From Pacificoceanicola onchidii (lineage in GTDB: Bacteria > Pseudomonadota > Alphaproteobacteria > Rhodobacterales > Rhodobacteraceae), in the NCBI RefSeq assembly GCF_004804335.1, contig NZ_SRXY01000001.1, positions 496,001 through 560,000 on the forward strand: 64,000 bases of DNA, in the 5' to 3' direction. The position numbers and the translations under genes are program-made. Of this stretch, positions 6,406-35,265 are shown piece by piece. The stretch's first letter is position 1; each line of letters starts with the position of its first letter. The notes beneath the pieces were generated by a model. It saw only the letters and a list, made by a program, of their open reading frames with translations, made no database searches and had not been told where the DNA came from.

Positions 6406-6483
6406 CCGGGGGGACTTGGTGCGAGGAATGGACAAAAGTTTGAAAGCCACCTTATCATACCCCCATTCAGACGAAAGCGTACC

Positions 6484-7388: not shown

Positions 7389-7747
7389 AGCGGGGCCGTT
7401 CCGACAAGGGATTGACGCTGGTCGAACTGGCGGTTGCCATTCTTGTGCTGTCGATCGGCAGCATCGCCGCCCTGCGCGCCGCCGATCAATCCGCACGCGT
7501 GGTGGGCGGTGAAATGCCCCGCCTGCTGGCGCGTATCGCAGCCATGAACCGGGCCGAGGAACTGCGTCTTGCCGCCCCGCTGTTCAGTACCTTGCCCGCC
7601 AGCACGCAGATTGGCGAGAGCTTGATCACCTTAGTGACAGAGACCGAACGCACCGCAGGCGGATTGATCCGCGCCACCGTGACCGCCCGGACCGAAAGCG
7701 GCGAAGGCGCGTCCTTGGTGGTCTACCTGCCGGGGGCCGGGCTGTGA
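7373..7747 (+). CDS. gspI: Minor pseudopilin GspI
   Basis: This 124-residue protein has the prepilin signature G|LTLVELAVAILVLSIGSIAALRA after a short basic leader (KRGRSDK). The conserved AEELRLAA segment follows, as expected for GspI. GspI nucleates the pseudopilus tip with GspJ and GspK. The length is normal. The stop TGA overlaps the GTG start of gspJ. The assignment rests on the leader type plus gene order. Confidence 0.9.
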   Translation: MFRRLKRGRSDKGLTLVELAVAILVLSIGSIAALRAADQSARVVGGEMPRLLARIAAMNRAEELRLAAPLFSTLPASTQIGESLITLVTETERTAGGLIRATVTARTESGEGASLVVYLPGAGL

Positions 7748-8397
7748 ACGGGCGCGGCGGAGGGGACAAGGGCCTGAGCCTGATCGAGCTGGTGGTGGCC
7801 ATGGCGATCTTTGCGCTGGTGGCCATCATGGGCGCGCAAACGCTGACCGGGATGCTGCGGATGCGCAACGGAATTACGGCCCGTTCCGATGACGCGGCTG
7901 CGCTGGCCGAAGCGACCAGCCTGCTGCGCGCGGATATGGCCGCCGCCATCCCCATGCTGTTCTTTGCGCCGGATGTTTCCTACGCCGAGTCCGCAATTTT
8001 GTTTGAGTCCGGTGAGCTTGGCCTGTCCGTCGGCGGACAGCGCGGGATGCTGACCGGCGACAACGACATTCCTCTGAGCCGCGTCAGCTGGCGCATCGAA
8101 GACGGTACGCTGATCCGTCGCACATGGCCCACGCTGACCCCAGCCGCCACCGTGCGCCCCACCCCGGACCAGCCGGTGATGCAAGGCGTCGACGCGCTGC
8201 GGCTGCGCAGCTATCTGCCGGATGTCGGCTGGGTCGAGGGTCTGCGCGTGCCATCCAACACACAAGACCAGGCGGTAGACGGCGACGAAGGAGCGCTCAT
8301 TGCCTCAAGTTATTCCAGCGGCTTGCCGCTGGGCCTGGAAATCACCCTGATAACCCGCGACTACGGCGCGATTCCCATCGTGGAGCGGCTGCAATGA
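7744..8397 (+). CDS. gspJ: Minor pseudopilin GspJ
   Basis: This 217-residue protein has the prepilin cleavage site G|LSLIELVVAMAIFALVAIMGAQ. A central part with ...RSDDAAALAEATSLLRADMAAA and ...VSWRIEDGTLIRRTWP is typical of the GspJ fold. It starts with GTG at 7744 inside the stop of gspI. GspJ joins GspI and GspK in the trimer at the pseudopilus tip. It overlaps gspK by 4 bases (ATGA). Confidence 0.92.
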   Translation: MNGRGGGDKGLSLIELVVAMAIFALVAIMGAQTLTGMLRMRNGITARSDDAAALAEATSLLRADMAAAIPMLFFAPDVSYAESAILFESGELGLSVGGQRGMLTGDNDIPLSRVSWRIEDGTLIRRTWPTLTPAATVRPTPDQPVMQGVDALRLRSYLPDVGWVEGLRVPSNTQDQAVDGDEGALIASSYSSGLPLGLEITLITRDYGAIPIVERLQ

Positions 8398-9365
8398 GGA
8401 CGGATCGCGGCTTTGTTCTGGTCAATGCCTTGGTCATCGTGGCCGCGCTGAGCGCTGTTGCAGTCTTCCTGTTGACCCGCTCCGAAGCCGGTCAGGCCCG
8501 GCTTGAGGCCGGGTTGGCCGCCGATCAGCTGGCGCTTAACCTCGATGCGTTTGAGGCGCTGTCGATCACCTCGCTGGCCCGCGACACCAATGGCATCGAC
8601 CATGCGGGCGAAGACTGGGCACAACCGCTACCCCCGGTCGCGCTGGCGCAGGGACAGGTGACCGGACAGCTCGAAGACCTGCAGGGGCGCTACAACGTGA
8701 ACTGGCTTGCCATTCCCGGTCTGGTTCTGGCCGACGAAGCTTTTGACCGGCTGCTCACCCGGCTGGGTGTTGGCGCGGAGGCTGGCTCGGCCATTCGCGA
8801 CTTTCTCCAGCCCGGCGGGCCGCGTGACCGCGCAGGCTGGCGGCAGCTTGATCCACCATTGGAGCCGCGCGGCGGGGCCATTCTGGACCTTGGACAGCTG
8901 AGACAGATTCCCGGCCTGTCAGAGCGCAGTCTGGAGCGGCTTCTGCCTTACATCGCCGCCGTGCCGGGCGTCTCGCAGCTCAACGTGAACACCGCCCCGC
9001 AAGAGGTGCTCAGCGCGTTTTTCCCGCAAGTGCCCCCTGCGCAAATGGCCCGGCTGATGGTCAAGCGCAGGCAGGAGCCTTTCCCCTCCCGGATCGAATT
9101 TCTGCGTCAGATCGGACTGGCCGAAGAAGACGACGACAAGGCCGAAACGGACGGTTTGACCGAGGAGGAACGCGAGGCGCAGGAGCTGGAGGAGAAACAA
9201 CGGCAGCAAGAGCTGGAACGCACAATTTCGGTGCATTCCGACTGGTTCCGCCTTGATGCCAGCGCCGAAGTGCGCGGGCGCATGGCGCGGCGGGTGACCG
9301 TACTGAGCCGCGAAGGCGTCCCCGCGAAGGTAAAAGTCACATGGGCCATGACGTTTCGGCCATGA
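8394..9365 (+). CDS. gspK: Minor pseudopilin GspK
   Basis: This 323-residue protein is the largest pseudopilin. The leader is RTDRG|FVLVNALVIVAALSAV; it lacks Glu at +5, as is normal for GspK, which caps the tip. The helix-rich region includes DLQGRYNVNWLAIPG and LNVNTAPQEVLSA, the standard GspK motifs. A highly charged insert (about residues 250-285, EEDDDKAET... EEEREAQELEEKQRQQ) is unusual. The start is the ATG overlapping the gspJ stop; the longer open frame upstream is out of register with gspJ and rejected. The stop overlaps the ATG of a possible 40-residue frame. Confidence 0.94.
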   Translation: MRTDRGFVLVNALVIVAALSAVAVFLLTRSEAGQARLEAGLAADQLALNLDAFEALSITSLARDTNGIDHAGEDWAQPLPPVALAQGQVTGQLEDLQGRYNVNWLAIPGLVLADEAFDRLLTRLGVGAEAGSAIRDFLQPGGPRDRAGWRQLDPPLEPRGGAILDLGQLRQIPGLSERSLERLLPYIAAVPGVSQLNVNTAPQEVLSAFFPQVPPAQMARLMVKRRQEPFPSRIEFLRQIGLAEEDDDKAETDGLTEEEREAQELEEKQRQQELERTISVHSDWFRLDASAEVRGRMARRVTVLSREGVPAKVKVTWAMTFRP

Positions 9366-9484
9366 AATCGTTTGAACCATTGAACTTGGCCCGCCCGGCG
9401 GTGCATGCTGCGGCGGCAAGGATGAGCCGTTTTGCGCGCATGTCAGGCCGATTCCAGGCCCTGTCTTTTCGGATCGCGCTTTGA
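9362..9484 (+). CDS. Possible 40-residue small ORF between gspK and gspL
   Basis: A frame of 40 codons starts on the ATGA that overlaps the gspK stop, the same coupling used by other genes in this operon. It ends just before the gspL ribosome site. The peptide is basic (several Arg, no acidic residues after the start region) with the core ARPAVHAAAARMSRFARMS, and it has no membrane segment. It may be a real small protein, a translational bridge that brings ribosomes to gspL, or chance. I do not recognise it. Confidence 0.3.
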   Translation: MKSFEPLNLARPAVHAAAARMSRFARMSGRFQALSFRIAL

Positions 9485-9492
9485 GAGGACCC

Positions 9493-10692
9493 GTGGCCAA
9501 GACACGCCAGAACACAGCGCAGTCAGACGACGGCTCCGGCTTTGTCCGCCTCGGGGGCAAACGTGCCAGCGCGCGTCAGGTGGTACTGGTGCCGGGCAGT
9601 GCCGTGCCGCTTGTGGCGCTGGACCTGCCGGATCGGCTGCGTGGACAGGCGCGCGAACAGGTGGCGCAGCGGCAATTGTCGGATCGGCTCGGCCTGCGCG
9701 CGGAGCAGATCGCCATGCGCCCCTTTTCGGTCCAATCCAAAGCCAAAAAATCCGGGGAAGCGTGGTCTCGCGTGATCGCGGCTGACAAGGCCTGGCTTGA
9801 AACGCTGCGCGATGAGCCGGGGCGCGCGGTGCTGCCGGACTACCTGTCCCTTCCCACCGCACCGGGTCTTTGGACGGTTCAGGAGGTCGAGGCGGACGGC
9901 CATCCGCAGGTGATGATCCGGTTTGGTCCATCCGATGGACTGACCGCCCAGCCCGCATTGGCGCTGAGCGCGCTCCGACAGGCGTTGGTTACGCAGGATT
10001 TGCCAAAGGCGATCTATGCGCCGGGCAATCTACCGGACGGCTTGGAGGCTTTGGCAGAAACAGCCAATGTCCCGGTGTTCACCGATGCAAAGGCGCTGAC
10101 CAAGGCAAAGGGGAGCAAACCCGTGGTCCTTGGCCATGGCGAGCTGGCTTGCGATCTGCGCAAGAACCCGATGGCCGCCCGCGCCCGTCTCGCCCGCCGG
10201 GTGCTGCCGTGGCGCTGGACCGCCGTTGCGGCCCTGCTGGCAGGCGGCCTCTGGGCCGGGTTGCAGTGGTTTGAGCTGGACCGGACAGAGCGGCAAACGC
10301 AGGCCGTCTCGCAAGCGACGACGTCCATGGTGCAACAGGTTTTCACCGGCAACGCACCGGTTCTGGATGCGCGCCTTCAGGTCAGCCGCGCGCTGGCCGA
10401 TCTGCAAGCGGGGCAGGACGTTGATGGCGAGGCCATGGACGCGCTGGATCTGGTGCACAACGTTTCACTGGTGCTGACCGGCGCGCGGATTGTGCCGGAG
10501 CTTCTTGATTATCGCAGCGGCGAAGACCTTCGGCTGATTGCGCGTCTGCCGGACTTTGCAGCGGGTGATCGTCTGGCTGACGCCCTGCGGGCGGGCGGTT
10601 TGCGCGTTGATCTGCGCGATTCCCGCACGGAAGACGGGGAAACCGGCGTGCGCACAGAGTTCGCGATTGCGCCTGCGGAGGCCGTGGAATGA
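9493..10692 (+). CDS. gspL: T2SS inner-membrane assembly protein GspL
   Basis: This 399-residue bitopic protein recruits GspE to the membrane. The N-terminal ~235 residues fit the cytoplasmic actin-like GspL domain (VVLVPGSAVPLVALDLP near the start). A membrane segment follows at about 235-255 (WRWTAVAALLAGGLWAGLQW), then a periplasmic ferredoxin-like domain to the end. I choose GTG 9493 (protein MAKTRQ after start conversion) because GAGAGGA sits 4 bases upstream. A TTG at 9481 would add four residues but has no such site. It overlaps gspM by 4 bases. Confidence 0.9.
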   Translation: MAKTRQNTAQSDDGSGFVRLGGKRASARQVVLVPGSAVPLVALDLPDRLRGQAREQVAQRQLSDRLGLRAEQIAMRPFSVQSKAKKSGEAWSRVIAADKAWLETLRDEPGRAVLPDYLSLPTAPGLWTVQEVEADGHPQVMIRFGPSDGLTAQPALALSALRQALVTQDLPKAIYAPGNLPDGLEALAETANVPVFTDAKALTKAKGSKPVVLGHGELACDLRKNPMAARARLARRVLPWRWTAVAALLAGGLWAGLQWFELDRTERQTQAVSQATTSMVQQVFTGNAPVLDARLQVSRALADLQAGQDVDGEAMDALDLVHNVSLVLTGARIVPELLDYRSGEDLRLIARLPDFAAGDRLADALRAGGLRVDLRDSRTEDGETGVRTEFAIAPAEAVE

Positions 10693-11183
10693 GCGGCTCC
10701 TTGCTCGACATGCTCTTGCGCCTCAGCCCGCGCGAACGCGGGCTTCTGGGGCTGATGACCGGGGTCGCCCTGCCGCTTGGCATCGGTTTTGCTGTGCTTT
10801 TGCCACTCTACGAGGCCCGGCAGGCGGCAGAGGCTGACCGCGAAGAGGCGGTTGCCCTGCAAGCCTGGGTCGCGGCCCGCGCGGGGGAAGCACAGGGTTT
10901 GGCGCAGTCCGTCATCCCCGATCAGGCCTATGAGCCGATTGGTCTTTCCGGGATCGAGGAAGGTCTGATCGCCGCCAACCTGCGCGGTGCCCTGACCAGC
11001 ATTGGCACAGAAAGCGGCGGGGTGATTGCCCTGCGCTTCGACAGTGTCGATTTTGTGCGGCTCGCCACATGGCTGTCTTCGGCGCATCCCTCTTGGGGCT
11101 ACACGATCCAGACCCTGCGGCTGGAGGACATCGGCGCGCCCTCGAAGGTGTCCGCCCGGATCGAACTGAGTCCAGCCCGGTAA
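10689..11183 (+). CDS. gspM: T2SS inner-membrane assembly protein GspM
   Basis: This 164-residue protein has a short cytoplasmic N-terminus with LSPRERGLLGLMT, a motif common in GspM. One membrane segment (about 20-42) follows, then a periplasmic domain with FDSVDFVRLATWLSSAHPSWGY. GspM stabilises GspL. It is the last gene of the gspGHIJKLM run and starts on the ATGA of the gspL stop. A strong hairpin terminator follows 20 bases later. GspN is not found, as in many compact systems. Confidence 0.92.
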   Translation: MSGSLLDMLLRLSPRERGLLGLMTGVALPLGIGFAVLLPLYEARQAAEADREEAVALQAWVAARAGEAQGLAQSVIPDQAYEPIGLSGIEEGLIAANLRGALTSIGTESGGVIALRFDSVDFVRLATWLSSAHPSWGYTIQTLRLEDIGAPSKVSARIELSPAR

Positions 11184-11202
11184 TTGATTTCCCAAAAGGA
11201 AA

Positions 11203-11235
11203 CCGCCGCGCCCTCGTGAGGCGCGGCGGTTTTTT
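11203..11235 (+). terminator. Rho-independent terminator after gspM
   Basis: A perfect 10-bp stem (CCGCCGCGCC paired with GGCGCGGCGG) encloses a 7-base loop and is followed by six T residues. It ends the T2SS operon. It also lies 12 bases past the stop of the convergent giant gene, and the opposite strand has a short T-containing stretch, so it may work both ways. Confidence 0.93.
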
Positions 11236-11246
11236 GTGTTTCTCGA

Positions 11247-14200
11247 TCAGAAGTCGAGCGAGACGCCGTGTTCGAGCGTCACTTCTTCCGGGCTCGGCAT
11301 GGCGAGGCGGGTGACCACGGCCCCCTGCCCGCGCGCAAACTTGCGCTCGCGGGTGAAGTCCAGCGTCAGACGGTTGAGATCGTCGAGACGCTCGTAGTCC
11401 AGCTCGAACCCGTAGCTCAGATGCTTGCTCGGCTTGGTCATCATCACGGATATGTTGATGCCCGCGCTACAATCCGCGCCATCGCCATAAGACGAGAACT
11501 CACAGGCGACACGCGGGGTGAAGCTCATTTCGGTCATCATCTCGCCAAAGGCGGCCGCGCCCTCCTTGGAGCCGATCCCGGCGAACTCGACCTCCGCAAA
11601 GAGGCGCCCGCCGCTGAAGTCCGGCAACTCGATCCGGCCCGTGTCCGTCTGGCCAAGCTGCTTGGCCGTGACGCTGGCGTCCGAGACCCAGGCATGAGCC
11701 AGATCGAGACCAACGCGCGGGGTCAGGGTGAACGTCTCGTACTCCCGTGTTCCGCTCAGCGCCACACCGCCGAAGACCGCCGCATAGCGATAGTCGCCGG
11801 TGGCCGTGATGTCAGCCGGATTGGCATCGAAGGTCAGGTCATAGCGATGCATGCCGATGGCCGCCGAAGCGTAGTAGTCCATGAACAATCCATCGCCCAG
11901 ATCACGCGCGCCGTAGACGCCGCCATTGAGACCAAAGCCGTTGATCACACCATCTGCCGGGCCATCCACGAGGTTTCGGCTGTAGTAGCCCCCCCAGAAG
12001 AAGCCGTGCAGCGCGCTCTCGGACAGGAACTTTTCGCTCTGGCGCGAGAACTGCAGCATCGCCTGCGTGCCTTTGTCTGCCGACCAGTTGAGCGAGAAGC
12101 TTCCGTCAAGGATCTCACGCCGCATGGTGTAGCAGTTGTAGACATCCCAGCCGAACTTGCCGTCGCTGCTGCCGGTGCCGTCCTGAATGGTCAGACGCCC
12201 ATCCACATCCGGTGCCGAGATCGTCCCGCATTCCAACCCGCTCTGCCCTTCCTTCAGGCGGCTGAGCGCGCCTTTGGCAATGCGGCTGAAGTGACGCTGC
12301 TGGGTGCGGACGGTCTGCTCAAGGTCATCCTTGAGGATTTCCGTCAGCGGATCGCGGATTTGGTCTACAAGATCGTCCGTGACCGTCACCGTGCTGAGCG
12401 CCAGCGCATAAGCATCGTAGCGGGAATCCGCGGAGGATACCGTGACCGTCGGCTGACAGCTGTGCGTGCCCTCGACATCCTCATCGTCAATCGCCCGGAT
12501 CGTCAGCGCCTGCGGGCTGGTGTAGTTGGCCGACGTAAAGGTCAGCGTTGCGGGCATGACCTTACACTGGCTGTCACCGGCAAAGCTGAGCGTGACATTG
12601 GACGAAGGCTGACCCAGCAGGACGAAGGACATGGTCGCATCATCATCGCCGTTTTCCGAGGTGGTCAGATCCACATCGGTGACCGCGATCACCGCGTTGT
12701 CATCGTCGAGGATGCTGGCCGTCGCGGTCAGATCGGAGGCGGTAGTGCTGAGCATCGTCACCGTATCGCCGGAGGTCACTCCCGCAAGGGTCAGCGACAC
12801 GCTCTCGGATCCTTCGATCAGGCCGTCCTCCAGAACCGGAACGGTCACAACAACCGATGTGTCGCCAACCGGGATCGTGGCCGTGCCGCTCGGCGCGGTG
12901 TAGTCCGTCCCGCCGGTTGCCGTGCCACCCATGGTGTAGGTGACCACCGTGGGCAGGGCCGACAGACGATCCTGCGCGATGACAAAGGTCACGTCCGTGG
13001 GCGTGCCGCCATTCGCTTCCGCCCCGTTCTGGCCAAGGCTGGCCGTGACCGGGTTTTCCGCGCATTGCGTCATGGGCACGTTGTTTGCCAGAACATCCGG
13101 ATCGCCCGGTTCGATGACAAAGGTGTCGTAGAAGACGCTCGCCGAGGCATCCGCGAGGAAGCCGGTGCTGCCATCCTCGGTCGAGCCGAGAACACCAGGG
13201 TTCGACGGCAGGATCGTGGTCACGTCCAGCGTGCCGGAGGAGAGGCGCGCCGTGCTCGGCAGACCCTCGCTGGCCGGGTAGCTGTAAGTCACCGTGTAGG
13301 TGCCGGGGCGTGTTGCGAACCACTGGAACTCACCGGTGGAGCCGTCGCGGACAATGTTGATGTCATTGGCAAGGCCGATGCTGCTGTTCGACCCGGACGG
13401 TCCGCTGACGGTGATGCCGCCACCGGCCAGGATCCGGCCATCGTCTTCACAGTAGAAATAGCCCTGCGGATCGTAGTCCGACGCATCCGGGATACCGTCG
13501 CCATCGCGGTCGCCTGTCTCGTTTGCATCCGGAACGCCATCGCCATCGCTGTCAGGCAAGGGTGCCGGATCGGGCGTGCCGGTCAGATCCGCCGTGGCCA
13601 TGACCGGATCGGAGACAACACTGTCGTTGCCCTGCCCGTCCTGCGCCGCGGCGGCCAGCACCGTGATGGTGATGTCACCGTCATGATCCGGGGTCAGCGT
13701 GAAGGTGTAGGTATCCCCGCTGCCGTTCAGAACAGACGCAGTGCCGTTGTCGATGTCCAGCGACGCCAGTGCAAAACCCGTCACCGGTTCGCTGAAGCTC
13801 ACCGTCACTTCGAACGGATCGGACTGTGCTTCGGTCGGGACGGTCAAGGTGACCGTCGGCTGAATCACGTCTTTGGTCGCTGTTCCGCTTGCCCGGATGC
13901 CGGCGTTACCCGCCGTATCCGTCAGCGCAACGGTCACTGTCAGCGTGCCGTCTCCGAGGCCCGACACATCCAGCCCGCTCACCTGCTCGGTTGCGCTGCT
14001 GATCGTGCCGCTTCCCGTCATGGCCGTGCCGCCGCTATCGGAAGAGATCGCATAGACAAAGCTGGCCCCGACCTCGGCACCGGAGAAACTGAAACTCACC
14101 GCCGAGACGTTCGAGAGGTTCACCGGATCCTGATCAAAGCTCACGCCATAACCGGAAGGCGCGGTGGCGTCTTTACTCAGGCTGGCCGTGGCCTGCGGTG

Positions 14201-17200
14201 CCGGGTTGCCCGCCGCATCGTCGAGGTCCGCCGTCAGGGACAGGGCCCCATCCGCGAGGGCGCTCAGGTCCATTGCGGTGGACCAGATACCACCGGAAAC
14301 CGTTGCACTGCCCGTCGCCGTTGCGCTGCCATCGCTGACCGCCAGTGTCACGCTCTGGCCGTCTTCGACGTCCGTTGCCGTGCCGCTGATCGTGGCCGAG
14401 GACGCTTCGGAGGCGTTCACCACATCATCGTCCAGCAGGGGGCTGTCGAAGGCGACACCTGGAACCGCCACATCCTTCGTGGCGTCATCCGTGGCCGCAG
14501 CGCCGGTGTTGCCCGCAAGGTCTGTCAACGTCACGCTGAGTGTCAGCGTCCCGTCGTTGAGGCCCGTGAGGTCAATCGCACTCACCTGTTGATCGGCAGA
14601 GGCAATGGTGCCGCTGCTGCTCACCGGCGTGCCGCCAGCATCGGAGGTGATGGTGTAGTTGAACATCGCGCCAACTTCGGCTCCGGCAAAGGTGAAGCTC
14701 GCCGCGCCCGCTGTCGCGAGGTTGATCGGGTCCTGATCGAAGAGCACGGTGTATCCCGAAGGTGCCGTTGCATCCTTGGTTACGGTTGCCGCCGCCTGCG
14801 CCGCCGGATTGCCAGCAACATCACTTGCGTCGGCGGTCAGGTTGATCGTCCCGTCTGCCAGCCCGCTGAGATCGAGGACAACAGTCCATGCGCCGCCGGA
14901 CACCGTTGTTGTGCCGCTGACCGTGGCCGTGCCGTCGCTGGCGGCAACTGTCACGGTCTGCCCATCGGGCAGGCCGCTGGACGTGCCCATGACGCTTTGC
15001 GCGCCCGCCTCTGCCGCGTTGACCACGTCATCGCCGGAAATCGGCCGGTCAAAAGCGAGCGTCGGGGCGACAACGTCCTTTTCAACCGTATCGGTTGACG
15101 CAGTCGATGCGTTGCCCGCCGTATCCGTCACAACAACGCTGAGCGTCAACGTGCCGTCCGCCAGACCGCTCAGGTCAAGCCCGCTCACAGCATGTGTCGC
15201 ACTGCTGATTGTGCCCGTCCCTGTGACAGCCGTGCCGCCGCCAGAGGACGTGATGGTATAGGCAAAGCTTGCCCCGGTTTCGCCATCGGTAAAGCCGAAG
15301 CCAGACGCCGTTTCATTGGCGGCGTTCACCGCCGTCTGCGCGAAGGCCACGGTAAAGCCGGTTGGCGCAGCCGTGTCCTTGGTAAGGGTATCCGTTGCCG
15401 GAACCGCCGGGTTGCCCGCCGGATCCGTCGTGGAGGCCGACAGTGTCAGAGGACCATCGGCAAGTCCCGAAAGGTCGAACGTGGCGCTCCAGGCGTTGCT
15501 GCCGACGGTGGCCGTGCCCGAGACGGTAGCCGTGCCATCGCTGACTTGAACCGTGATCACATGGCCATCGGGCAGATCCGTGGAGGTGCCATCAATGGTC
15601 ACCGCGCTCTCTTCGGCCGCGTTGACCACATCATCCCCTGCGAAGGGACCGTCAAACGCCAGTGTCGGAGCAACCACGTCTTTCTCGATGGTGTCGGTGA
15701 CCGCCGGGGCGGCGTTGCCCGCGATATCGGTGACAACAACGCTGAGCGTCAGCGTGCCATCCGGCAACGACGACAGGTCCGCAAAGGCCTGATGTGTTGC
15801 ACTGCCAAGGGTGCCTGTGCCCGTGACCGGCGTACCGCCCGCGCTGGACGACACGGTAAAGGCAAAGGTCGCGCCGGTTTCTGCTCCTGTAAAGCTGAAG
15901 TCCACCGCTGTCTGGTTGGCCGCGTTCACCGAAGCCGGGTTGAACGCCACACCGAAGCCCGTGGGCACGCCGGTGTCTTTCGTCAGGCTGGCCGTGGCTT
16001 CGATGGCCGGGTTGCCGGACGGATCGGTGGCATTGGCCGCAATGCTGAGAGAACCGTCGGCGAGGCCTGACAGGTCAAGCGTCACACTCCAGACCCCACC
16101 TGTCACATTGGCGGTGCCGGGCACGGTTGCGCTCAGGGAATCGGTGACAACAATTGCGACCGCATTGCCATCCGGCAGATCGCTGGACGTGCCGGAAATC
16201 GTAACCGAGCCGGCCTCGGACGCGTTCACCAGATCATCACCTGCAAGCGGGTTGTCGATGGCAAGCGATGGGGCAACCGTATCCTTGGTGATGGTGTCCG
16301 TGATCGCTGTACCCGCGTTGCCCGCAGGGTCCGACAGGGTCGCCGTCAAGGTTAGCGTACCATCCGCCAGACCGCTGAGATCAAGACCCGAGATCTGATC
16401 TGTGGCGGTCGCCAGAGTGCCGCTGCCGGTCACTGCCGTGCCGCCGCCGCTGGAGGTGATCTGGTAAACAAAGGAGGCGCCAACCTCGCCGCTGGCAAAG
16501 TCAAACGCAACAGAGGTTTCATTGGCCCCGTTCACAGACGAAGGCGTGAAGCTCACGCTCGCACCGCTCGGCGCAACCGTGTCTTTCCCCAAGATGGCGG
16601 TGGCCTGAGTGGCCGGGTTGCCCGCAACGTCACTGACATCTGCGGTCAGGTTCAAGGTTCCGTCTGCAAGGGGTGTCAGATCAACAACCGTGCTCCAGAC
16701 CCCGCTGTTCACCGTCGGGTTGACCAAAACAAAGGTCGCACCATCACCCGCGATGATGTTGACGGGTTGCCCATCTTCCGCATCTGTCGAGGTGCCACTA
16801 ATCGTAACGGTGGGAGCTTCGGTGCCGTTGATGACATCATCGCCCATGAGCGGGTTGTCGAAGGTCAGGGTCGGAGCCACCGTATCCTTGATGATGGTGT
16901 CAGTCACTCCAGCAGCCACGTTGCCCGCCGCATCCGTCAGGATCACGGTTATCGTCAGCGTGCCCTGCCCCGGGAAACTGTGATCGGAGTTTCGTCTTTC
17001 GTGAACCGGATTGGCCGTGATCGTGCCAGTCCCCGAAGGCGCAATCACCGAGCCATCAAACACTTCGTAACGGAACCTCGCACCCACTTCGGCGTTATTG
17101 ATGTCAAAACCGATGTTGTACTGATTGGCGATGTTCACGAAGGACTGGACATAGCTGACACTGTGCCCGCTCGGTGCGATGGTGTCTTTGGTCAGTCCGG

Positions 17201-20200
17201 CGCTGGCCTGGGCGGCCGGGTTGCCCGCAACATCGCTGAGATCTGCGGTCAGGCTGAGCGCCCCTTCATTCAGGGCGGACAGGTCAAGCGTGACGCTCCA
17301 CACTCCGCTGTTAACCGTGGCGCTGGACGGAATCGTGGTGGTGCCATCGGAAATGGCCAGTGTCACGGTCTGACCGTCCTCCGCATCGGTGGAGGTGCCG
17401 CTGATGGTCACGGCCGCCACTTCGGTGCCGTTCACCTGATCATCACCCATCAACAGGCTGTCGAAGCTGACCGTGGGCGCTGTTGCGTCCTTGGTGGTTG
17501 TGTCCGTGACGTTGCCGCCTGCGTTCCCTGCCGTATCGGTCAGGGAGAGAGTGACCGTCAGCGTGCCATCGCCAAGACCGGACAGGTCGATACCGCTCAG
17601 CGTCTGGGGCGCGCTGGTAACGGTGCCGCTGCCTGTAACAGGCGTGCCGCCCGCGTCCGAGGTGATGGTATAGGCGAAACTCGTGCCAAACTCACCGCCA
17701 GTCAGGGTCAGGGACGCGGCGCTCTCGTTCGAGAGATTGACCGGGTCCTGATCAAAGGCCATGGAATAGCCGCTGGGCGCTGCCACGTCCTTGGTCAGGT
17801 TGGCCGTCGCCTGCGTTGCCGGATTGCCCGCAACGTCGCTGAGATCAGCCGTCAGGCTGAGCGATCCATCGCTGAGACCGGACAAATTGACAACCGTGCT
17901 CCAGATGCCACCCGAAACGAGGGCCGAGCCGGGCACCGTGCTGCTGCCATCCCCAATGGACAGGGTGACGCTCTGGCCGTCCTCCGCATCGGTGGAGGTG
18001 CCGCTGATCGTGACCGTGGCGGCTTCTGCTGCGTTGACCACATCATCGCCCGCAAGCGAGCTGTCGAAAGCGACGGTCGGCGCAACAGCATCCTTTTCGA
18101 TGGTATCCGTCACCGCCGGGGCTGCGTTGCCATTGGTGTCGGTCAATGTGACGCTGAGGGTCAAAGTGCCTTCGCCAAGGCCGCTGAGATCCAACGGGTT
18201 CACGGTTTGAGAAGCCGAGGTGATCGTGGTCGGCCCACCGGTGACAGAACCCGCGCCCGTGTCGGTGATCTGGTAAGTGAAGCTCGCGCCCACTTCGCCG
18301 CCGGTCAGCGTGAAGGAAATCGCGCTTTCGTTGGCAAGGTTCACCAAGGTCTGATCGAAGGCCACGGACTGTCCCGTCGGGGGCGTGGCATCCAGGGTCA
18401 CAGCCGCCGGAGTCGCCGAAGCGGGGGTGCCATTCACATCGGATACCATGGCGGTGATCGACACAGCGCCATCCGCAAGACCGCTCATGTCGAGGTTCAC
18501 GGAATAGGCGTTGCTCGCCACGCCGAAGGTCTGGGTAGACGTGCCGGACGCGCTGTCTGTCGCGGTGACGGTCACTGTCTGACCATTGGCAACGGCCACG
18601 GTCATACCGGACACGGTCACCGAAGGCGCTTCTGCGCCATTGACGATATCATTGGTCGCAATCGGCGTTGTGATCGTGATCCCCGGCTGACTGAGCGTTG
18701 CGCTCGCCGTGCCCGCACTGCCAAGAGACGTACTCAGGGCCCCTGTTGTGTTTACATAAGATCCCGCGCCGGTCAGCGTGACATCAACGGTGATTGTACA
18801 GCTGCCCGAGGCGGCAACGGTACCGCCGGAATAGGAAACTGTTCCGGACCCGGCGACGGCTGTCAGCGTGCCGCCGGTGCAAGTGGTTGCCGCATTGGAC
18901 GGCGTCGCCACAACCATGCCCGCAGGCAGCGTGTCCGTAACACTCAGGGCTGTGGCGGGAACCAGCGCTGTCGCGTTGTTGATGGTCAGTGTCATGGTCG
19001 AGCTGCCACCCGCCGCGATGCTCACTGCGTCAAAGCTCTTGGAGAAGGACGGAATCGGTGCACTGGACACCAGAAGCGTCGGAGCCGTGCCAGCCGCGCC
19101 ACCCAGGCTCGACGTCAGGCTTCCGATGGGCTGTGTCTTGAGGCCGGCGGTCGAAGTCACAACGTCAAAGCTGATGGTACAGGTCGCGCTGGACGGAAGT
19201 GTGCCGCCCGCATAGGAGAAGCCGGAGGTGCCAGCCGTCGCCGTTACCGTTCCGCCCGTACAGGTCGTGGAGGCATTGGACGGCGTTGCCACGAGCAGCG
19301 AGCTTTCCAGGGTTCCGGAGAACCCGGCACCGGTAGCCGAAGTGCCTGCGCCGCTGTTGTCGAGCGTGAAGGTCAGGGTGCTGATCGCGCCCTGCACCAC
19401 CGGCGCGGGTGCAAAGGCGGCGCTGAAGCCCGGGTTCGGGACAACGGTAAAGCTATCGGAGACCGGATCAGCCAGCACATCACCGTTCGAGGAGAGCGCC
19501 GAGCTGGTCGTCGTGACGGAACCGGACGCCGCCGCGGCGGGAATCTGCAGAACAACATCAACGGTACAGCTGCTTGAAGGCGGAACCGACAAGCCGTTCG
19601 CGGACAGCACGCCTGTGCCTGTTCCACTTATGCTGCCGGTTGGGCAAGTCGTTGACGATCCGGCGCCAAGAGTGAGGCCCGACAAGATGGAATCGTAGTC
19701 ATCATTGAACTGCAAATCGCTCAACGTGACCGACGCATCGGTGTTGGTGATCGTGTAGGTGCCTGTCAGGGTCTCACCCGCCCCGACAAAGGCGGAATCA
19801 TAGCTGAGGGCGAACATCGGCAGCTCGAAGCTGCGCACTTCGAAGGCCGATTCCACGGAAATCCCGGAGATCATCAACCCGGATGCGCTCCCCGAAGGCG
19901 GGGCCGTTGTCGAGGACAGGAAGCTTGCGACCGGCGCGTTGGACGGGATGTTCAAATCCGCCGAAATCGTACAGGTGCCCAGCGCCGCGATCGATCCACC
20001 GCTGAAGTCGAAACTCAGGCCACCCGTGAAGGTGCCGCCGCAGGTGGACGTCGGCGATCCTGAAAGCGTGGTGCCGGAGGGGAAGCCCGAAAGGGAATCT
20101 ACGAAACTGACCGATGTGACAGGATCATCCAGAGTGTTTTCGATCGTGTAAGTCACGCTCAGCGTGTTGCCTGCAGAAACCGGATCGGGGGTGTAAACCC

Positions 20201-22712
20201 GGCTCAGCTCCAGAAAGTCGCTTTTGACCAACGCGTCCGAACTGATGCTTGCCAGAACCACGCTCGAGCCGCTGACGCTGCCGGTCACGGCGCTGCTGTT
20301 CAGCTTATAACTGCCATCCGCTGTGGCTGCGGGCAGCGTGCCCGTGACGTCGAAGGTACAGCTTGTCCCTGCCGTCACCGAAAGTCCCGAGAAGACCAAA
20401 AAGGCCGAGAAATCGGTCGCGGAACTGCCGGCTCCGCAGAAGCCGGCGGACGGCAGAACGGTGATCGTTGTGGCGTTGTTGAACAGGTTGTAATCGTCGG
20501 TAAAGGTAACGGCGGTGTAATCGGAGCCAGTGGTGTTGGTGAAGGTGTACCGTGCGGTAAAGCTGCCGCCGGGGATCAACGGCTGGTCGAGGAACTCTCG
20601 TACCATGTCCAGAGGCGCAACAGGCAGAATATCCAGATCGGCTGTGGCGGGCGGCGTAGAAACCGGCTCACCGCCAGCCGTGCCTGTCAGCCCACCAGCG
20701 GTGTTGGTGAAGGTGCCGTTCACACCCGTCGGAAGGGTGATGTCAAACACGATCGTACAATCATGCCCGATGGGCAGGCTTGCCACGTCGAAAATCGCGT
20801 TTGTCGATGTGGAGGTGCCATTGAGTGTTGCACCACAGGTGCCGCCCAGGTTGCCGGCATAGGTTGCACCGGTAACGAAGTTTGCCAGGTTGTCATCCAC
20901 CTGCAGGTTCACCGCCTCGGACGGGCTTTCCTCGTCGCTTTCAAGCAAAAGGGTTGCCGTGACTGTCGATCCGGCCACTGCATTGGCCACATCAAAGGAT
21001 TTTGAAAGGCTCAGATCTGCGCCGCCGATCACGGTCAGCGTTGCCGAAGCTGCGTCTCCGTAAAGGGTCTGGCCGGACAGCACGGCGGAAATCGTCTCGG
21101 TCGGGGAGTCATAGGTTCCCGGCGATGTGCCCGCCGGAATGGAAAAGGGCAGCGTGATCGTACATTGCGCATTGCCAAGCGCATTGCCAGCCAACGCCCC
21201 GCCCGTCAGGGTCAGCTCATCGTCAAAGGAGTCATAACTGAACGACCCACCGCACGTGTTCACTGCAGAGACGGTATTCGGGATCATGCCGCTTGGCGGT
21301 GAGACCTCGTCCACAAAGGTGATATCGGTGAAGTCCATTCCCGCACCATTGAGATTGTCGATCGTGTAGATGACCGTGACATCTGTGTCGGGAGCGGACG
21401 GCTGAAGACCCGGCGTGCCTGTATCAGCGTCATAGGATTTGCTCAGGATCGGCGGCAAGGCGCTCGACGATTCGATGTAAAGGAACGCGCTGGCCTGGTT
21501 GCCGGTATAAGGACTGCCGTCCAACATCCCGCTGATCGCGCTTGTCTGGTTCTCGTAGGAGCCGGCTGTGGTCACAGATGCAGGAAGTGTTACAGGGACA
21601 GTGAAGGAGCAAAACTGTTCACCGGCCAATGACCCGCCGGTGAGCGTCAGAACCTGATTCCCCCCGGACAGGGCGAGGCTGGATCCCGCTCCACAGGGGT
21701 TAGCCGGCAGGGATCCGGTGAAGGTGGCGCCTGCGATCATGGACGACAGATCATCGGAGAAGGTCAGCGCGGTTCCGGGATCGTTCCGTGTTTTGTTGCT
21801 TACGGTGAAGGTCAGCTGAACGGTTTCCGTCGGCAGGGCGCTGCCTTCGTCAAACGCCTTCTCCAGAACGATTCCGCCGGTCGGGAGACCCGCAACCGAG
21901 AGCGATTCGACAAAACTGCTGCTGAGTTGCGAGACAGTCCCGGACAAATCGAAGTCACCCGCCGCTGTCGCTGTCACGTCGAAGTCCAAAGTGCAAGCCG
22001 CAGTGGTTGGCACGAACCCAACCAGTTCAACAGTGGACGCGCCAGGGTTGGCGGTGATGGTGGCCGTTCCTGGGGTGCCGTTGAACAAACAGTCCGTCGC
22101 GGCGTTGGGCGGGCTCGCCACTTCAATGCCCGTTGGCAGAGTTTCGGTCAGAATAACCTGCTGGAATGACGAAGTGCCCGCGCCGAAGGTATAACTCACC
22201 GTTGTGCGCCCGCCGATGGTCGCCATCGAGGAAGACAAAGACTTGGACGCCGGAAAGAACCCCGGTTGAACGGTCAAGCTGGCATTTTCAGCCGTCTCAC
22301 CGCCCGCGTCCGTCAACCAGCTGTAGACAACAGTCTCCGTGGTATTGCTCGCCACCGTGCCTGCTGCAACCGGAACCGTAATCTGACAGCTCGCGCCGCT
22401 GCCAAGATTGAACGCGGAAACACTGACCGACGTAGAGCCGGGGACGGCCGATACCGCTGCGCCAAAACAGCTGTTTGTCACTGCACTCTGACCAACTGTC
22501 AGAACACCCGGCAAGGTGGTCGTGACCGCAACCCCGGTTGTCCCTGACGCCGCAGCCCCCTGAAAATCGAGGATGGCCGTTACTTCACCGTTCGAGACAA
22601 CCGATGAAGACGAGAAGTAAGGATTGAACGTCACCCCGGATTGAGCGCTGGCAAGAGCCGGCAAAACAGAAAACACGAGTGTGAAGAGCGCGCGGCGCAG
22701 AAAGCTGGTCAT
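11247..22712 (-). CDS. Giant autotransporter-like surface adhesin (3,821 residues)
   Basis: The protein begins with a signal peptide (1-23, ending ALASA). Residues ~24-1340 are ten related domains of ~130 residues, each with a cysteine pair of the form C-x(25-35)-C-[T/S/Q]; they resemble DUF11/DUF7933-type bacterial surface repeats. Residues ~1340-2947 are sixteen ~100-residue Ig-like repeats in alternating A and B types. A further Ig-like domain (~2948-3040), a thrombospondin-3-like calcium segment (DSDGDGVPD...DRDGDGIPD, ~3050-3085), an unassigned domain, and two Calx-beta-like domains (~3215-3450) follow. A helical linker (~3450-3490) precedes a ~290-residue beta-barrel ending in Phe. This fits a type Va-like autotransporter in which the barrel anchors the passenger to the outer membrane. 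The role is likely adhesion or a surface fibre. It is convergent with gspM. T2SS export is possible but not shown. Confidence 0.85.
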   Translation of the reverse strand: MTSFLRRALFTLVFSVLPALASAQSGVTFNPYFSSSSVVSNGEVTAILDFQGAAASGTTGVAVTTTLPGVLTVGQSAVTNSCFGAAVSAVPGSTSVSVSAFNLGSGASCQITVPVAAGTVASNTTETVVYSWLTDAGGETAENASLTVQPGFFPASKSLSSSMATIGGRTTVSYTFGAGTSSFQQVILTETLPTGIEVASPPNAATDCLFNGTPGTATITANPGASTVELVGFVPTTAACTLDFDVTATAAGDFDLSGTVSQLSSSFVESLSVAGLPTGGIVLEKAFDEGSALPTETVQLTFTVSNKTRNDPGTALTFSDDLSSMIAGATFTGSLPANPCGAGSSLALSGGNQVLTLTGGSLAGEQFCSFTVPVTLPASVTTAGSYENQTSAISGMLDGSPYTGNQASAFLYIESSSALPPILSKSYDADTGTPGLQPSAPDTDVTVIYTIDNLNGAGMDFTDITFVDEVSPPSGMIPNTVSAVNTCGGSFSYDSFDDELTLTGGALAGNALGNAQCTITLPFSIPAGTSPGTYDSPTETISAVLSGQTLYGDAASATLTVIGGADLSLSKSFDVANAVAGSTVTATLLLESDEESPSEAVNLQVDDNLANFVTGATYAGNLGGTCGATLNGTSTSTNAIFDVASLPIGHDCTIVFDITLPTGVNGTFTNTAGGLTGTAGGEPVSTPPATADLDILPVAPLDMVREFLDQPLIPGGSFTARYTFTNTTGSDYTAVTFTDDYNLFNNATTITVLPSAGFCGAGSSATDFSAFLVFSGLSVTAGTSCTFDVTGTLPAATADGSYKLNSSAVTGSVSGSSVVLASISSDALVKSDFLELSRVYTPDPVSAGNTLSVTYTIENTLDDPVTSVSFVDSLSGFPSGTTLSGSPTSTCGGTFTGGLSFDFSGGSIAALGTCTISADLNIPSNAPVASFLSSTTAPPSGSASGLMISGISVESAFEVRSFELPMFALSYDSAFVGAGETLTGTYTITNTDASVTLSDLQFNDDYDSILSGLTLGAGSSTTCPTGSISGTGTGVLSANGLSVPPSSSCTVDVVLQIPAAAASGSVTTTSSALSSNGDVLADPVSDSFTVVPNPGFSAAFAPAPVVQGAISTLTFTLDNSGAGTSATGAGFSGTLESSLLVATPSNASTTCTGGTVTATAGTSGFSYAGGTLPSSATCTISFDVVTSTAGLKTQPIGSLTSSLGGAAGTAPTLLVSSAPIPSFSKSFDAVSIAAGGSSTMTLTINNATALVPATALSVTDTLPAGMVVATPSNAATTCTGGTLTAVAGSGTVSYSGGTVAASGSCTITVDVTLTGAGSYVNTTGALSTSLGSAGTASATLSQPGITITTPIATNDIVNGAEAPSVTVSGMTVAVANGQTVTVTATDSASGTSTQTFGVASNAYSVNLDMSGLADGAVSITAMVSDVNGTPASATPAAVTLDATPPTGQSVAFDQTLVNLANESAISFTLTGGEVGASFTYQITDTGAGSVTGGPTTITSASQTVNPLDLSGLGEGTLTLSVTLTDTNGNAAPAVTDTIEKDAVAPTVAFDSSLAGDDVVNAAEAATVTISGTSTDAEDGQSVTLSIGDGSSTVPGSALVSGGIWSTVVNLSGLSDGSLSLTADLSDVAGNPATQATANLTKDVAAPSGYSMAFDQDPVNLSNESAASLTLTGGEFGTSFAYTITSDAGGTPVTGSGTVTSAPQTLSGIDLSGLGDGTLTVTLSLTDTAGNAGGNVTDTTTKDATAPTVSFDSLLMGDDQVNGTEVAAVTISGTSTDAEDGQTVTLAISDGTTTIPSSATVNSGVWSVTLDLSALNEGALSLTADLSDVAGNPAAQASAGLTKDTIAPSGHSVSYVQSFVNIANQYNIGFDINNAEVGARFRYEVFDGSVIAPSGTGTITANPVHERRNSDHSFPGQGTLTITVILTDAAGNVAAGVTDTIIKDTVAPTLTFDNPLMGDDVINGTEAPTVTISGTSTDAEDGQPVNIIAGDGATFVLVNPTVNSGVWSTVVDLTPLADGTLNLTADVSDVAGNPATQATAILGKDTVAPSGASVSFTPSSVNGANETSVAFDFASGEVGASFVYQITSSGGGTAVTGSGTLATATDQISGLDLSGLADGTLTLTATLSDPAGNAGTAITDTITKDTVAPSLAIDNPLAGDDLVNASEAGSVTISGTSSDLPDGNAVAIVVTDSLSATVPGTANVTGGVWSVTLDLSGLADGSLSIAANATDPSGNPAIEATASLTKDTGVPTGFGVAFNPASVNAANQTAVDFSFTGAETGATFAFTVSSSAGGTPVTGTGTLGSATHQAFADLSSLPDGTLTLSVVVTDIAGNAAPAVTDTIEKDVVAPTLAFDGPFAGDDVVNAAEESAVTIDGTSTDLPDGHVITVQVSDGTATVSGTATVGSNAWSATFDLSGLADGPLTLSASTTDPAGNPAVPATDTLTKDTAAPTGFTVAFAQTAVNAANETASGFGFTDGETGASFAYTITSSGGGTAVTGTGTISSATHAVSGLDLSGLADGTLTLSVVVTDTAGNASTASTDTVEKDVVAPTLAFDRPISGDDVVNAAEAGAQSVMGTSSGLPDGQTVTVAASDGTATVSGTTTVSGGAWTVVLDLSGLADGTINLTADASDVAGNPAAQAAATVTKDATAPSGYTVLFDQDPINLATAGAASFTFAGAEVGAMFNYTITSDAGGTPVSSSGTIASADQQVSAIDLTGLNDGTLTLSVTLTDLAGNTGAAATDDATKDVAVPGVAFDSPLLDDDVVNASEASSATISGTATDVEDGQSVTLAVSDGSATATGSATVSGGIWSTAMDLSALADGALSLTADLDDAAGNPAPQATASLSKDATAPSGYGVSFDQDPVNLSNVSAVSFSFSGAEVGASFVYAISSDSGGTAMTGSGTISSATEQVSGLDVSGLGDGTLTVTVALTDTAGNAGIRASGTATKDVIQPTVTLTVPTEAQSDPFEVTVSFSEPVTGFALASLDIDNGTASVLNGSGDTYTFTLTPDHDGDITITVLAAAAQDGQGNDSVVSDPVMATADLTGTPDPAPLPDSDGDGVPDANETGDRDGDGIPDASDYDPQGYFYCEDDGRILAGGGITVSGPSGSNSSIGLANDINIVRDGSTGEFQWFATRPGTYTVTYSYPASEGLPSTARLSSGTLDVTTILPSNPGVLGSTEDGSTGFLADASASVFYDTFVIEPGDPDVLANNVPMTQCAENPVTASLGQNGAEANGGTPTDVTFVIAQDRLSALPTVVTYTMGGTATGGTDYTAPSGTATIPVGDTSVVVTVPVLEDGLIEGSESVSLTLAGVTSGDTVTMLSTTASDLTATASILDDDNAVIAVTDVDLTTSENGDDDATMSFVLLGQPSSNVTLSFAGDSQCKVMPATLTFTSANYTSPQALTIRAIDDEDVEGTHSCQPTVTVSSADSRYDAYALALSTVTVTDDLVDQIRDPLTEILKDDLEQTVRTQQRHFSRIAKGALSRLKEGQSGLECGTISAPDVDGRLTIQDGTGSSDGKFGWDVYNCYTMRREILDGSFSLNWSADKGTQAMLQFSRQSEKFLSESALHGFFWGGYYSRNLVDGPADGVINGFGLNGGVYGARDLGDGLFMDYYASAAIGMHRYDLTFDANPADITATGDYRYAAVFGGVALSGTREYETFTLTPRVGLDLAHAWVSDASVTAKQLGQTDTGRIELPDFSGGRLFAEVEFAGIGSKEGAAAFGEMMTEMSFTPRVACEFSSYGDGADCSAGINISVMMTKPSKHLSYGFELDYERLDDLNRLTLDFTRERKFARGQGAVVTRLAMPSPEEVTLEHGVSLDF
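13870..18690 (-). repeat. Sixteen alternating Ig-like repeats within the giant adhesin
   Basis: Eight A units (starting around SGY.VAFDQDPVNLSNES) alternate with eight B units (starting around TVAFDSPL.GDDVVNAAEA). Each is about 100 codons and units are joined by TKDxxAP-type linkers. The DNA is also repetitive: short blocks such as the GACGAT-rich region for DDVVN recur about every 600 bases. Units differ enough that no two are identical. The pattern suggests expansion by unequal recombination of an A+B pair. Confidence 0.9.
18710..22600 (-). repeat. Ten cysteine-paired surface domains in the adhesin N-terminal half
   Basis: Ten consecutive units of ~130 codons each hold two cysteines, the second in the context C-[TSQ]-[IVFL]. 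Examples are CTGGT...CTITV, CGGTF...CTISA and CGAGSS...CSFTV. Spacing is regular, so each domain probably has one internal disulfide. The Ig-like half downstream has no such cysteines. The units resemble DUF11/DUF7933 repeats. Confidence 0.8.
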
Positions 22713-35084: not shown

Positions 35085-35243
35085 GGGAGCGCCTTGGATC
35101 AATGTCTCGCAAGTACTTAAGCATTGGCAGGTGGCTGTTTCAACCGCGACACATCCGCGCTTATTCCATTGGCGGGCTTTTGTGTGCTGGACGCCCCAGC
35201 GCAGCCCGGCTAAACACCGCCGAGGAATGGCTGTGTTTTTCGC

Positions 35244-35265
35244 GGCCTCTGGTTGTAGAGAGGCC
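35244..35265 (+). other. Hairpin in the petA leader
   Basis: GGCCTCT and AGAGGCC form a perfect 7-bp stem with an 8-base loop. It lies 35 bases before the petA start, in the 215-base divergent region. A role in translation control is possible but not shown. Confidence 0.35.

What the first reader, a model, noticed from the sequence alone, without database searches (positions are those of the whole stretch)
11247..22712. 3,821-residue autotransporter-like adhesin next to the T2SS operon
One uninterrupted frame of 11.5 kb encodes a signal peptide, ten cysteine-paired domains, sixteen Ig-like repeats, a calcium-binding segment, Calx-beta-like domains and a C-terminal barrel ending in Phe. It is convergent with the T2SS. 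The combination of these domain types with an autotransporter barrel may be a little-described surface fibre.
Basis: partly seen in the sequence, partly recalled or inferred. Interest (0 to 1): 0.72.

Follow-up and report, generated by a model that had tools for sequence, protein, structure and literature searches.

The report
Giant surface fibre tied to T2SS
A marine bacterium encodes a 3,821-residue fibre that seems to hang from a barrel in its outer membrane, and in close relatives this gene nearly always sits beside the genes of a protein-export machine (the type II secretion system), which suggests that the two work together and gives a direct experiment to run.

Summary
Window 11247-22712 (-) is one 3,821-codon frame: signal peptide, 10 Cys-paired DUF7933 domains, 16 Ig-like units in a 201-residue period plus a Big_12, a DxDGDG segment, two Calx-beta-like domains, then a long helix and a predicted beta-barrel ending in Phe (AlphaFold2 pLDDT 88.6; nearest solved folds include autotransporters EspP, NalP and Hbp, the transporter CdiB, and channels). 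The barrel is a divergent autotransporter-type domain: 22.3 bits against a PF03797 cut-off of 26, and about 16 strands, not 12.

The unexpected result is that the T2SS neighbour is not incidental. Close relatives of this gene lie directly beside T2SS-cluster genes in 11 of 12 named genomes, in three arrangements. All five plasmids that carry it also carry this T2SS. Among 295 genera, DUF7933 arrays track T2SS (10 of 12; base rate 17 of 295), while arrays of the similar DUF7507 do not (2 of 24). T2SS-bearing genomes also carry DUF7933 fibres on a second barrel, twice directly downstream of gspF, though mostly unlinked.

Best reading: a barrel-anchored, disulfide-rich attachment fibre belonging to a T2SS-centred module. 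Whether the T2SS exports or processes the fibre is untested. New variant of a known kind.

The parts
11247..22712 (-). Giant fibre gene, 3,821 aa
   Evidence: relatives
22641..22712 (-). Sec-type signal peptide (residues 1-24, cleavage after ASA probable)
   Evidence: read from sequence; no predictor run
18693..22640 (-). Ten DUF7933 domains (residues ~25-1340), each with a Cys pair 23-32 residues apart
13611..18692 (-). 16 Ig-like units in a 201-residue period plus one Big_12 (residues 1341-3034)
13464..13565 (-). DxDGDG calcium-type segment (residues ~3050-3083)
   Evidence: aligned in 13 sequences
13062..13460 (-). Unassigned conserved stalk domain (residues ~3085-3217, Cys 3088 and 3217)
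   Evidence: conserved in 12 of 12 aligned relatives; model of this part is low confidence
12378..13061 (-). Two Calx-beta-like domains (residues ~3218-3445)
12249..12371 (-). Predicted linker helix (residues 3448-3488)
   Evidence: AlphaFold2; within the aligned ranges with EspP/NalP
11250..12227 (-). Predicted ~16-stranded outer-membrane barrel ending in Phe (residues 3496-3821)
11197..11235 (+). Terminator hairpin between gspM and the fibre gene
1..1674 (+). T2SS: end of gspE (to 469) and gspF (466-1674); gspD upstream, outside the window
1677..2168 (-). gspC-like gene
   Evidence: NCBIfam GspC_delta 24 bits, below its cut-off of 150; homologues lie just before gspD in several relatives
2791..5552 (-). 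Two Sel1-repeat genes conserved in the T2SS cluster
5647..6855 (-). Prepilin peptidase (A24; listed start probably too early)
6484..6945 (+). gspG (start approximate)
   Evidence: tblastn with Tropicibacter GspG, 91% identity over its residues 16-154
6930..11183 (+). gspH, I, J, K, L, M (gspI by its N-methylation motif only and by position)

Best explanation
A giant attachment fibre held in the outer membrane by a C-terminal autotransporter-like barrel, and a standing partner of a particular type II secretion system of Rhodobacterales. Steps: (1) Sec export by the signal peptide (inferred from sequence). (2) The barrel inserts in the outer membrane with a helix in its pore (predicted; pore placement inferred from fold alignment). 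(3) The Calx-beta/DxDGDG stalk, the Ig repeats and the ten Cys-paired DUF7933 domains stand outside as a stiff, calcium- and disulfide-stabilised fibre that binds surfaces, algae or matrix (inferred). (4) The fibre works with the neighbouring T2SS. The genetic association is shown; what the T2SS does (secrete a partner or processing enzyme, or help the already disulfide-bonded passenger across the outer membrane) is inferred and undecided.
For: Barrel model pLDDT 88.6, pTM 0.82. VIA matches EspP Z 19.8, CdiB 19.4, NalP 19.2, Hbp 18.4, with the model helix inside the aligned ranges. T2SS linkage: 11 of 12 named genomes with a barrel at least 51% identical have the fibre gene directly next to a gsp or Sel1 gene of the cluster, in 3 arrangements (in three Mameliella genomes inferred from coordinates). 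5 of 5 plasmids with stalk and barrel carry this T2SS, adjacent in 4, though only 8 of 72,556 plasmid records hold a matching GspD at E <= 1e-60. Co-occurrence: DUF7933 arrays (6 or more matches) 10 of 12 T2SS+ against 17 of 295 overall, p = 1e-12; control DUF7507 arrays 2 of 24, p = 0.41. A second barrel type carries the same passenger in T2SS+ genera and sits directly after gspF in G251 and in Roseovarius faecimaris. The stalk is 64-72% identical among 12 relatives, the barrel 51-68%.
Against: No expression, localisation or adhesion data. 6 of 17 T2SS+ genera (G005, G031, G040, G082, G126, G200) have no DUF7933 match and G222 only one, so this T2SS does not need the fibre. Linkage is a feature of the window-type fibre: of the 10 T2SS+ array genera in the sample, adjacency was seen only in G000 and G251; Shimia (G204/G298) has the two on different contigs, G187 has them about 64 kb apart, G152 400 kb apart or on another contig, and G064, G098, G099, G133 and G210 on different contigs, some of them too short to judge. 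Genera are not phylogenetically independent, so shared ancestry may explain part of the association; on the T2SS tree DUF7933 presence needs 5 changes. With any match rather than arrays, the contrast shrinks: DUF7933 11 of 33, DUF7507 6 of 56 T2SS+. In the window a terminator separates the fibre gene from gspM. 2 of 12 arrays (G072, G146) lack the T2SS. Fold matches also include channels (CymA Z 19.0, FadL-type 16-17).
Confidence: 0.6

Rival explanations
1. Plain self-sufficient autotransporter adhesin: the barrel and BAM export the passenger unaided, and the T2SS is only a co-inherited member of the same surface-colonisation island or plasmid.
For: Linker helix, barrel and terminal Phe as in type Va. 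The second barrel type passes PF03797 (80, 58 and 74 bits in L108, L114 and L139), though L106 shows no PF03797 match at E 0.01. T2SS plasmids also carry rhamnose or polysaccharide genes. Six T2SS+ genera do without DUF7933. Related barrels carry other passengers in genomes mostly without a T2SS detected by the GspK model (26 of 27).
Against: The association persists where the genes are unlinked and with a different barrel, and arrays of another giant-adhesin repeat, DUF7507, do not show it.
Confidence: 0.4
2. T2SS-assisted export: the DUF7933 passenger folds and forms disulfides in the periplasm and needs the T2SS secretin to cross the outer membrane, while the barrel only anchors it.
For: Cys pairs 23-32 residues apart in 10 of 10 domains. 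PMC8151025 (passages) says T5SS proteins usually have few cysteines, only a few residues apart. Seven type-A relatives whose match range or alignment includes the helix linker, in genomes without a GspK match (L057, L060, L066, L068, L075, L077, L085), have 0-5 passenger cysteines, against 22-32 in the ten T2SS+ ones read far enough; two more T2SS+ ones (L045, L051) are cut short. Precedent for an Ig-like adhesin taken to the surface by a T2SS: InvL (PMC9245377, passages including the abstract).
Against: InvL is a lipoprotein without a barrel. A barrel plus in-pore helix is the equipment of self-transport. PMC8151025 also names autotransporters with disulfides (IcsA) and chlamydial Pmps with up to 18 cysteines. 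Several OmpA-linked relatives in genomes without a GspK match have Cys pairs too, often 8 apart. L083, with 4 passenger Cys, lies in a genome (G222/G327) that has a divergent T2SS. No disulfide was shown to form.
Confidence: 0.22
3. The T2SS secretes a separate partner that acts on the fibre, for example a protease or the FG-GAP/ASPIC protein encoded beside the cluster.
For: The FG-GAP_3/UnbV_ASPIC/ArsP_1 protein is encoded in 27 of 29 T2SS+ genomes searched and lies next to the fibre gene in Tropicibacter, Leisingera M527 and Phaeobacter G2.
Against: That protein is also present in T2SS+ genera without DUF7933 (G005, G031, G082, G126, G200), so it tracks the T2SS, not the fibre. Its permease domain suggests an inner-membrane protein. 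Only two T2SS- genomes were searched for it (0 of 2), so its own base rate is unknown.
Confidence: 0.15
4. The passenger is not exported but stays periplasmic, as an OmpA domain directly before the barrel in some relatives might suggest.
For: OmpA (peptidoglycan-binding) domain immediately before the barrel in L031, L034 and L036.
Against: The window protein has the helix linker instead; a 3,400-residue repeat fibre with Ig and Calx-beta domains is the usual make-up of exported adhesins (established knowledge).
Confidence: 0.04

Closest known systems
Type Va autotransporters (PF03797; EspP, NalP, Hbp)
   Same: Signal peptide, N-terminal passenger, linker helix, C-terminal outer-membrane barrel, terminal aromatic residue; among the best fold matches
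   Different: Below the PF03797 cut-off (22.3 vs 26 bits); ~16 strands over 326 residues; Ig/DUF7933 passenger rather than the usual beta-helix (recalled); many paired cysteines; T2SS linkage
InvL of Acinetobacter baumannii (T2SS-dependent Ig-like adhesin, PMC9245377)
   Same: Ig-like adhesin and a T2SS in one system
   Different: InvL is a 492-residue lipoprotein without a barrel; T2SS dependence was shown by experiment there and not here (passages)
Fibrillar adhesins with DUF11 (CLIPPER)/DUF7507/DUF7933 isopeptide domains (PMC12617251)
   Same: Tandem CnaA-like stalk domains; that paper lists DUF7933 as a predicted isopeptide family in which disulfides are prevalent (passages)
   Different: The Lys-Asp-Asn triad was matched in only 3 of 10 window domains by a crude pattern; barrel anchor and T2SS link do not appear in the passages read
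RTX/BapA-type giant adhesins (recalled)
   Same: Ca_tandemer Ig repeats
   Different: Sec signal peptide and C-terminal barrel instead of a type I secretion signal (definition recalled)

Membership tests
Type Va autotransporter | Matches the PF03797 beta-domain above the gathering score | tested here: not met
   22.3-22.4 bits vs 26; 22 of 42 type-A members match at E <= 0.1, best 1.4e-8
Type Va autotransporter | 12-stranded C-terminal barrel | tested here: inconclusive
   The model's element list has 18 strands, of which I read 16 as membrane-spanning and 2 as an extracellular hairpin; coordinates could not be inspected
Type Va autotransporter | Helical linker before the barrel, placed in the pore | tested here: inconclusive
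   41-residue helix predicted; aligned ranges include it with EspP, NalP and CdiB; pore placement not seen directly
Type Va autotransporter | N-terminal Sec signal peptide and passenger | tested here: met
   sequence; signal peptide read by eye
Type Va autotransporter | Passenger appears on the surface without another secretion system | not testable with these tools
   needs a gsp mutant
T2SS substrate | Export or surface exposure depends on gsp genes | not testable with these tools
   only genetic association is available
Type Ve inverse autotransporter (intimin/invasin) | N-terminal barrel followed by C-terminal Ig domains | tested here: not met
   barrel is predicted at the C-terminus and the N-terminus is DUF7933
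TpsB/BamA (Omp85) | POTRA domains before a 16-stranded barrel | tested here: inconclusive
   no POTRA among Pfam matches at E <= 0.1; Calx-beta-like domains precede the helix; CdiB is a strong fold match
DUF7933 isopeptide domain | Lys, Asp and Asn bond-forming residues | tested here: inconclusive
   pattern complete in 3 of 10 domains; triad named in PMC12617251

The most novel reading that the evidence does not exclude
A hybrid export route: a giant disulfide-locked fibre whose own barrel only anchors it, while a dedicated type II secretion system, often encoded beside it and kept even where the barrel is of another type, carries the folded passenger across the outer membrane.
Probability: 0.2. 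Interest if true: 0.87.

Novelty: new variant of a known kind. Interest (0 to 1): 0.62.

Why it matters
What T2SSs do in marine roseobacters is, as far as I know, largely open, and autotransporters are usually regarded as self-sufficient. A giant fibre family that follows one T2SS lineage on chromosomes and plasmids, through gene rearrangements and with two barrel types, points to a working unit, probably for attachment. It makes a clear question testable: does an autotransporter-like fibre with many paired cysteines need the machine that exports folded proteins? The broader result, DUF7933 arrays tracking T2SS while DUF7507 arrays do not, gives other genome readers a rule to test.

Tried and rejected
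Chance ORF or antisense artefact: rejected. The opposite strand also has long ORFs (1,276 and 936 aa), but domains, signal peptide and homologues lie on the minus strand.

Canonical PF03797 autotransporter as a filed membership: not met. Profile comparison of the window-type barrel with the second type gave only 21% probability, so I do not claim that the two are closely related, nor that one was swapped for the other.

GspK (PF21687) as T2SS marker: it missed G099 and G222, and hit G008, where only GspD- and GspE-like genes of another kind lie beside it (L121) and no GspD match at 1e-100 was found. So I repeated the base rate with GspD. The statement '12 of 12 close vs 1 of 27 distant barrels have T2SS' therefore stands for the GspK model only.

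Isopeptide locking of all DUF7933 domains as the reason for T2SS need: weakened, triad pattern in 3 of 10.

Stalk fold: the model has mean pLDDT 65; only the Calx-beta part is usable.

Sequence search of solved structures with the barrel profile: no hit at E <= 10. Channels such as CymA and FadL among the fold matches show that part of the similarity is general barrel shape.

Not in print: the listings of searches (15 of 42 shown; 12 of 14 shown; no paper) show no title or abstract start that describes this gene pair. Passages of PMC10778856, a review on T5SS and other secretion systems, speak of T5SS-T2SS cooperation only in general terms. PMC10090131 (passages) mentions the Leisingera M527 biofilm plasmid and T2SS in general terms. 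PMC13386836 (passages) notes T2SS on some Sulfitobacter plasmids. PMC5030684 is not held. Subscription papers are mostly not covered. The abstract of PMC12802150 was read and is not used as evidence.

Full report
WHAT IS THERE. The frame 11247-22712 (-) is real and complete: 3,821 codons, ATG start. Pfam finds ten DUF7933 stretches, Big_13/Big_3_3/Big_12 and a marginal Calx-beta; NCBIfam finds Ca_tandemer repeats. The twenty cysteines of the first 1,340 residues fall in ten pairs 23-32 apart. The next 1,600 residues repeat with a 201-residue period at 47.5% identity, made of two ~100-residue Ig-like halves. Two DxDGDG motifs follow, then a conserved unassigned domain and two Calx-beta-like domains that match the calcium-binding domains of NCX1/CALX. 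The stalk is 64-72% identical to 12 relatives; the barrel of the same relatives is 51-68% identical.

THE BARREL. With an alignment of 42 sequences (A4) AlphaFold2 gives pLDDT 88.6 and pTM 0.82 for residues 3440-3821: a 41-residue helix, then 18 strands, 16 of them membrane-spanning by my reading. Fold matches are EspP (Z 19.8), CdiB (19.4), NalP (19.2), Hbp (18.4), but also CymA (up to 19.0) and FadL-type channels (16-17), so a general barrel component must be allowed for. Only 22.3 bits are reached against PF03797 (cut-off 26); 22 of the 42 members match it at E <= 0.1. I call it a divergent autotransporter-type barrel.

HOMOLOGUES. In 295 same-family genomes, one per genus, 20 have a relative of the 382-residue C-terminus, two of them (own genome and G204) close. 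In named genomes 47 loci were fetched. These were found with the barrel, so they have it by construction; the point is that it caps many different passengers: DUF7507/DUF11/SdrD_B, SpaA+OmpA, CshA/Big_9+OmpA, VWA+DUF7507+OmpA, PKD, Big_12. In three of eleven aligned members an OmpA domain replaces the helix linker. A stalk-like domain (59-60% identity over about 165 residues) also occurs in DUF11-annotated proteins of plasmids of Roseovarius THAF9 and Roseivivax THAF40; the THAF9 protein (4,306 aa) has no PF03797 match.

T2SS LINKAGE. The window holds a T2SS: end of gspE, gspF, a gspC-like gene, two Sel1 genes, prepilin peptidase, gspG-M. Of 12 named genomes with a barrel 51-68% identical, 11 have the fibre gene directly beside the cluster: next to gspM (Pelagimonas x2, as in the window), next to the Sel1 gene (a Roseobacter MAG, Pseudophaeobacter x2, Phaeobacter), or directly downstream of gspF on the same strand (Mameliella x4, Antarctobacter). 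The exception is Shimia biformata, different contigs. For three Mameliella genomes (L050, L052, L053) the junction was inferred from coordinates and open-frame length, not read, and their gspK lies on another contig. The first two arrangements differ by inversion of the Sel1-gspM block (my reading); the third is a different position. Five plasmids carry stalk and barrel over 99-100% of the query (Tropicibacter oceani, Leisingera NJS204 and M527, Phaeobacter G2, Parasedimentitalea marina, the last in split frames). All five carry this T2SS, adjacent in four and 23 kb away in G2, while only 8 of 72,556 plasmid records have a matching GspD at E <= 1e-60. Of the other three T2SS plasmids one (Roseovarius faecimaris) has a DUF7933 fibre of the second type; in Tateyamaria omphalii none was annotated in the 42 kb read, and the third (M382) appears to be G200.

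CO-OCCURRENCE. T2SS by GspD: 17 of 295 genera. DUF7933 arrays with 6 or more matches: 12 genera, 10 of them T2SS+ (Fisher p = 1e-12; with GspK as marker 9 of 12, p = 6e-11). With any DUF7933 match at all, 11 of 33 are T2SS+. Control with DUF7507 arrays: 24 genera, 2 T2SS+ (p = 0.41); with any DUF7507 match 6 of 56. Of the 12 DUF7933 arrays, nine were read to a barrel (2 of window type, 7 of a second type; G251 only to the first part of its barrel) and all nine are T2SS+. G064 (T2SS+) and G072 (T2SS-) are cut by contig ends, and G146 (T2SS-) shows no barrel by eye. The second type reaches PF03797 in L108 and L114 (80 and 58 bits), not in L106 at E 0.01. It sits directly after gspF in G251 and in Roseovarius faecimaris, where the annotated 'autotransporter domain-containing protein' has 12 DUF7933 stretches and PF03797 at 74 bits. 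In the other second-type genera it is not adjacent to the T2SS or the contigs are too short to tell.

INDEPENDENCE. The p-values treat genera as independent, which they are not, and no species tree was available. On a 28-row tree of GspH-M, DUF7933 presence needs 5 changes and the window-type barrel 3; the rows without DUF7933 are about as scattered as shuffled labels (5 changes, shuffled mean 5.7). I read this as an old presence in this T2SS lineage with several losses and a change of barrel type, but such counts cannot tell gain from loss. Six of 17 T2SS+ genera have no DUF7933 match (G005, G031, G040, G082, G126, G200) and G222 has one.

A POSSIBLE REASON. A review says that T5SS proteins usually have few cysteines, only a few residues apart (PMC8151025, passages; it also names exceptions). 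The fibre has ten pairs with wide loops, and seven relatives with window-type barrel and helix linker in genomes without a GspK match have 0-5 passenger cysteines. T2SSs export folded proteins (established knowledge), and a T2SS-dependent Ig-like adhesin without a barrel is known, InvL (PMC9245377, passages). From this I derive the bold reading, T2SS-assisted display, at 0.2. The plainer readings are a self-exporting autotransporter in a shared attachment island, or a T2SS-secreted partner.

VERDICT. Real, well predicted, a new variant of a known kind (divergent barrel, DUF7933/Ig/Calx-beta passenger). The DUF7933-T2SS association is the surprising part, shown genetically here and not seen in the paper listings searched.

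Noticed in passing
L132:10625-13690; L134:9742-12882; L103:5851-9093: A ~1,020-1,080 aa protein with ArsP_1 permease, FG-GAP_3 repeats and UnbV_ASPIC is encoded in 27 of 29 T2SS+ genomes searched and 0 of 2 T2SS- ones, in many of them on the T2SS contig; in the window's own genome only a shortened match on contig C8.
   Followed up: partly
window 2791-5552 and relatives: A pair of Sel1-repeat genes beside a prepilin peptidase is embedded in many copies of this T2SS cluster; role unknown.
   Followed up: no
L031, L034, L036: OmpA (peptidoglycan-binding) domain directly before the same barrel in place of the helix linker, below surface-type repeat domains: an odd topology.
   Followed up: no
L136 and L140 (Parasedimentitalea marina plasmid pW43A): Two copies of the T2SS plus fibre block on one plasmid, both annotated with split genes in fibre and T2SS, as if decaying together.
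   Followed up: no
L137:12001-12504 (Roseovarius sp. THAF9 plasmid): The unassigned stalk domain (60% identity over 168 residues of the query) occurs in a 4,306 aa DUF7507/DUF11 protein upstream of a TonB-dependent receptor, without a PF03797 match.
   Followed up: no
G000:C3:~94500-108000: The window's genome also has a DUF7507 array in an open frame of 6,121 aa.
   Followed up: no
L126:12210-16421 (G200; same 103,081-base length as Rhodobacteraceae M382 plasmid CP081099.1): In a T2SS+ genus without DUF7933, a 1,403 aa protein with GGNDTL-type repeats follows gspF, the place where others have the fibre.
   Followed up: no
L135, L139, L141: T2SS/fibre plasmids of Phaeobacter G2 and Roseovarius faecimaris also carry rhamnose (rfb) or polysaccharide genes.
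   Followed up: no
L046 and L047: The Roseobacter MAG has the same T2SS-fibre region twice, 95 kb apart on one contig, possibly an assembly duplication.
   Followed up: no
L058: A contig labelled as an Actinomycetes MAG carries a barrel scoring like that of Marivivens donghaensis (both 43% identity to the query), probably contamination.
   Followed up: no
window 34419-35330 (-): Small outer-membrane barrel protein with weak OMP_b-brl and PF03797 matches.
   Followed up: no
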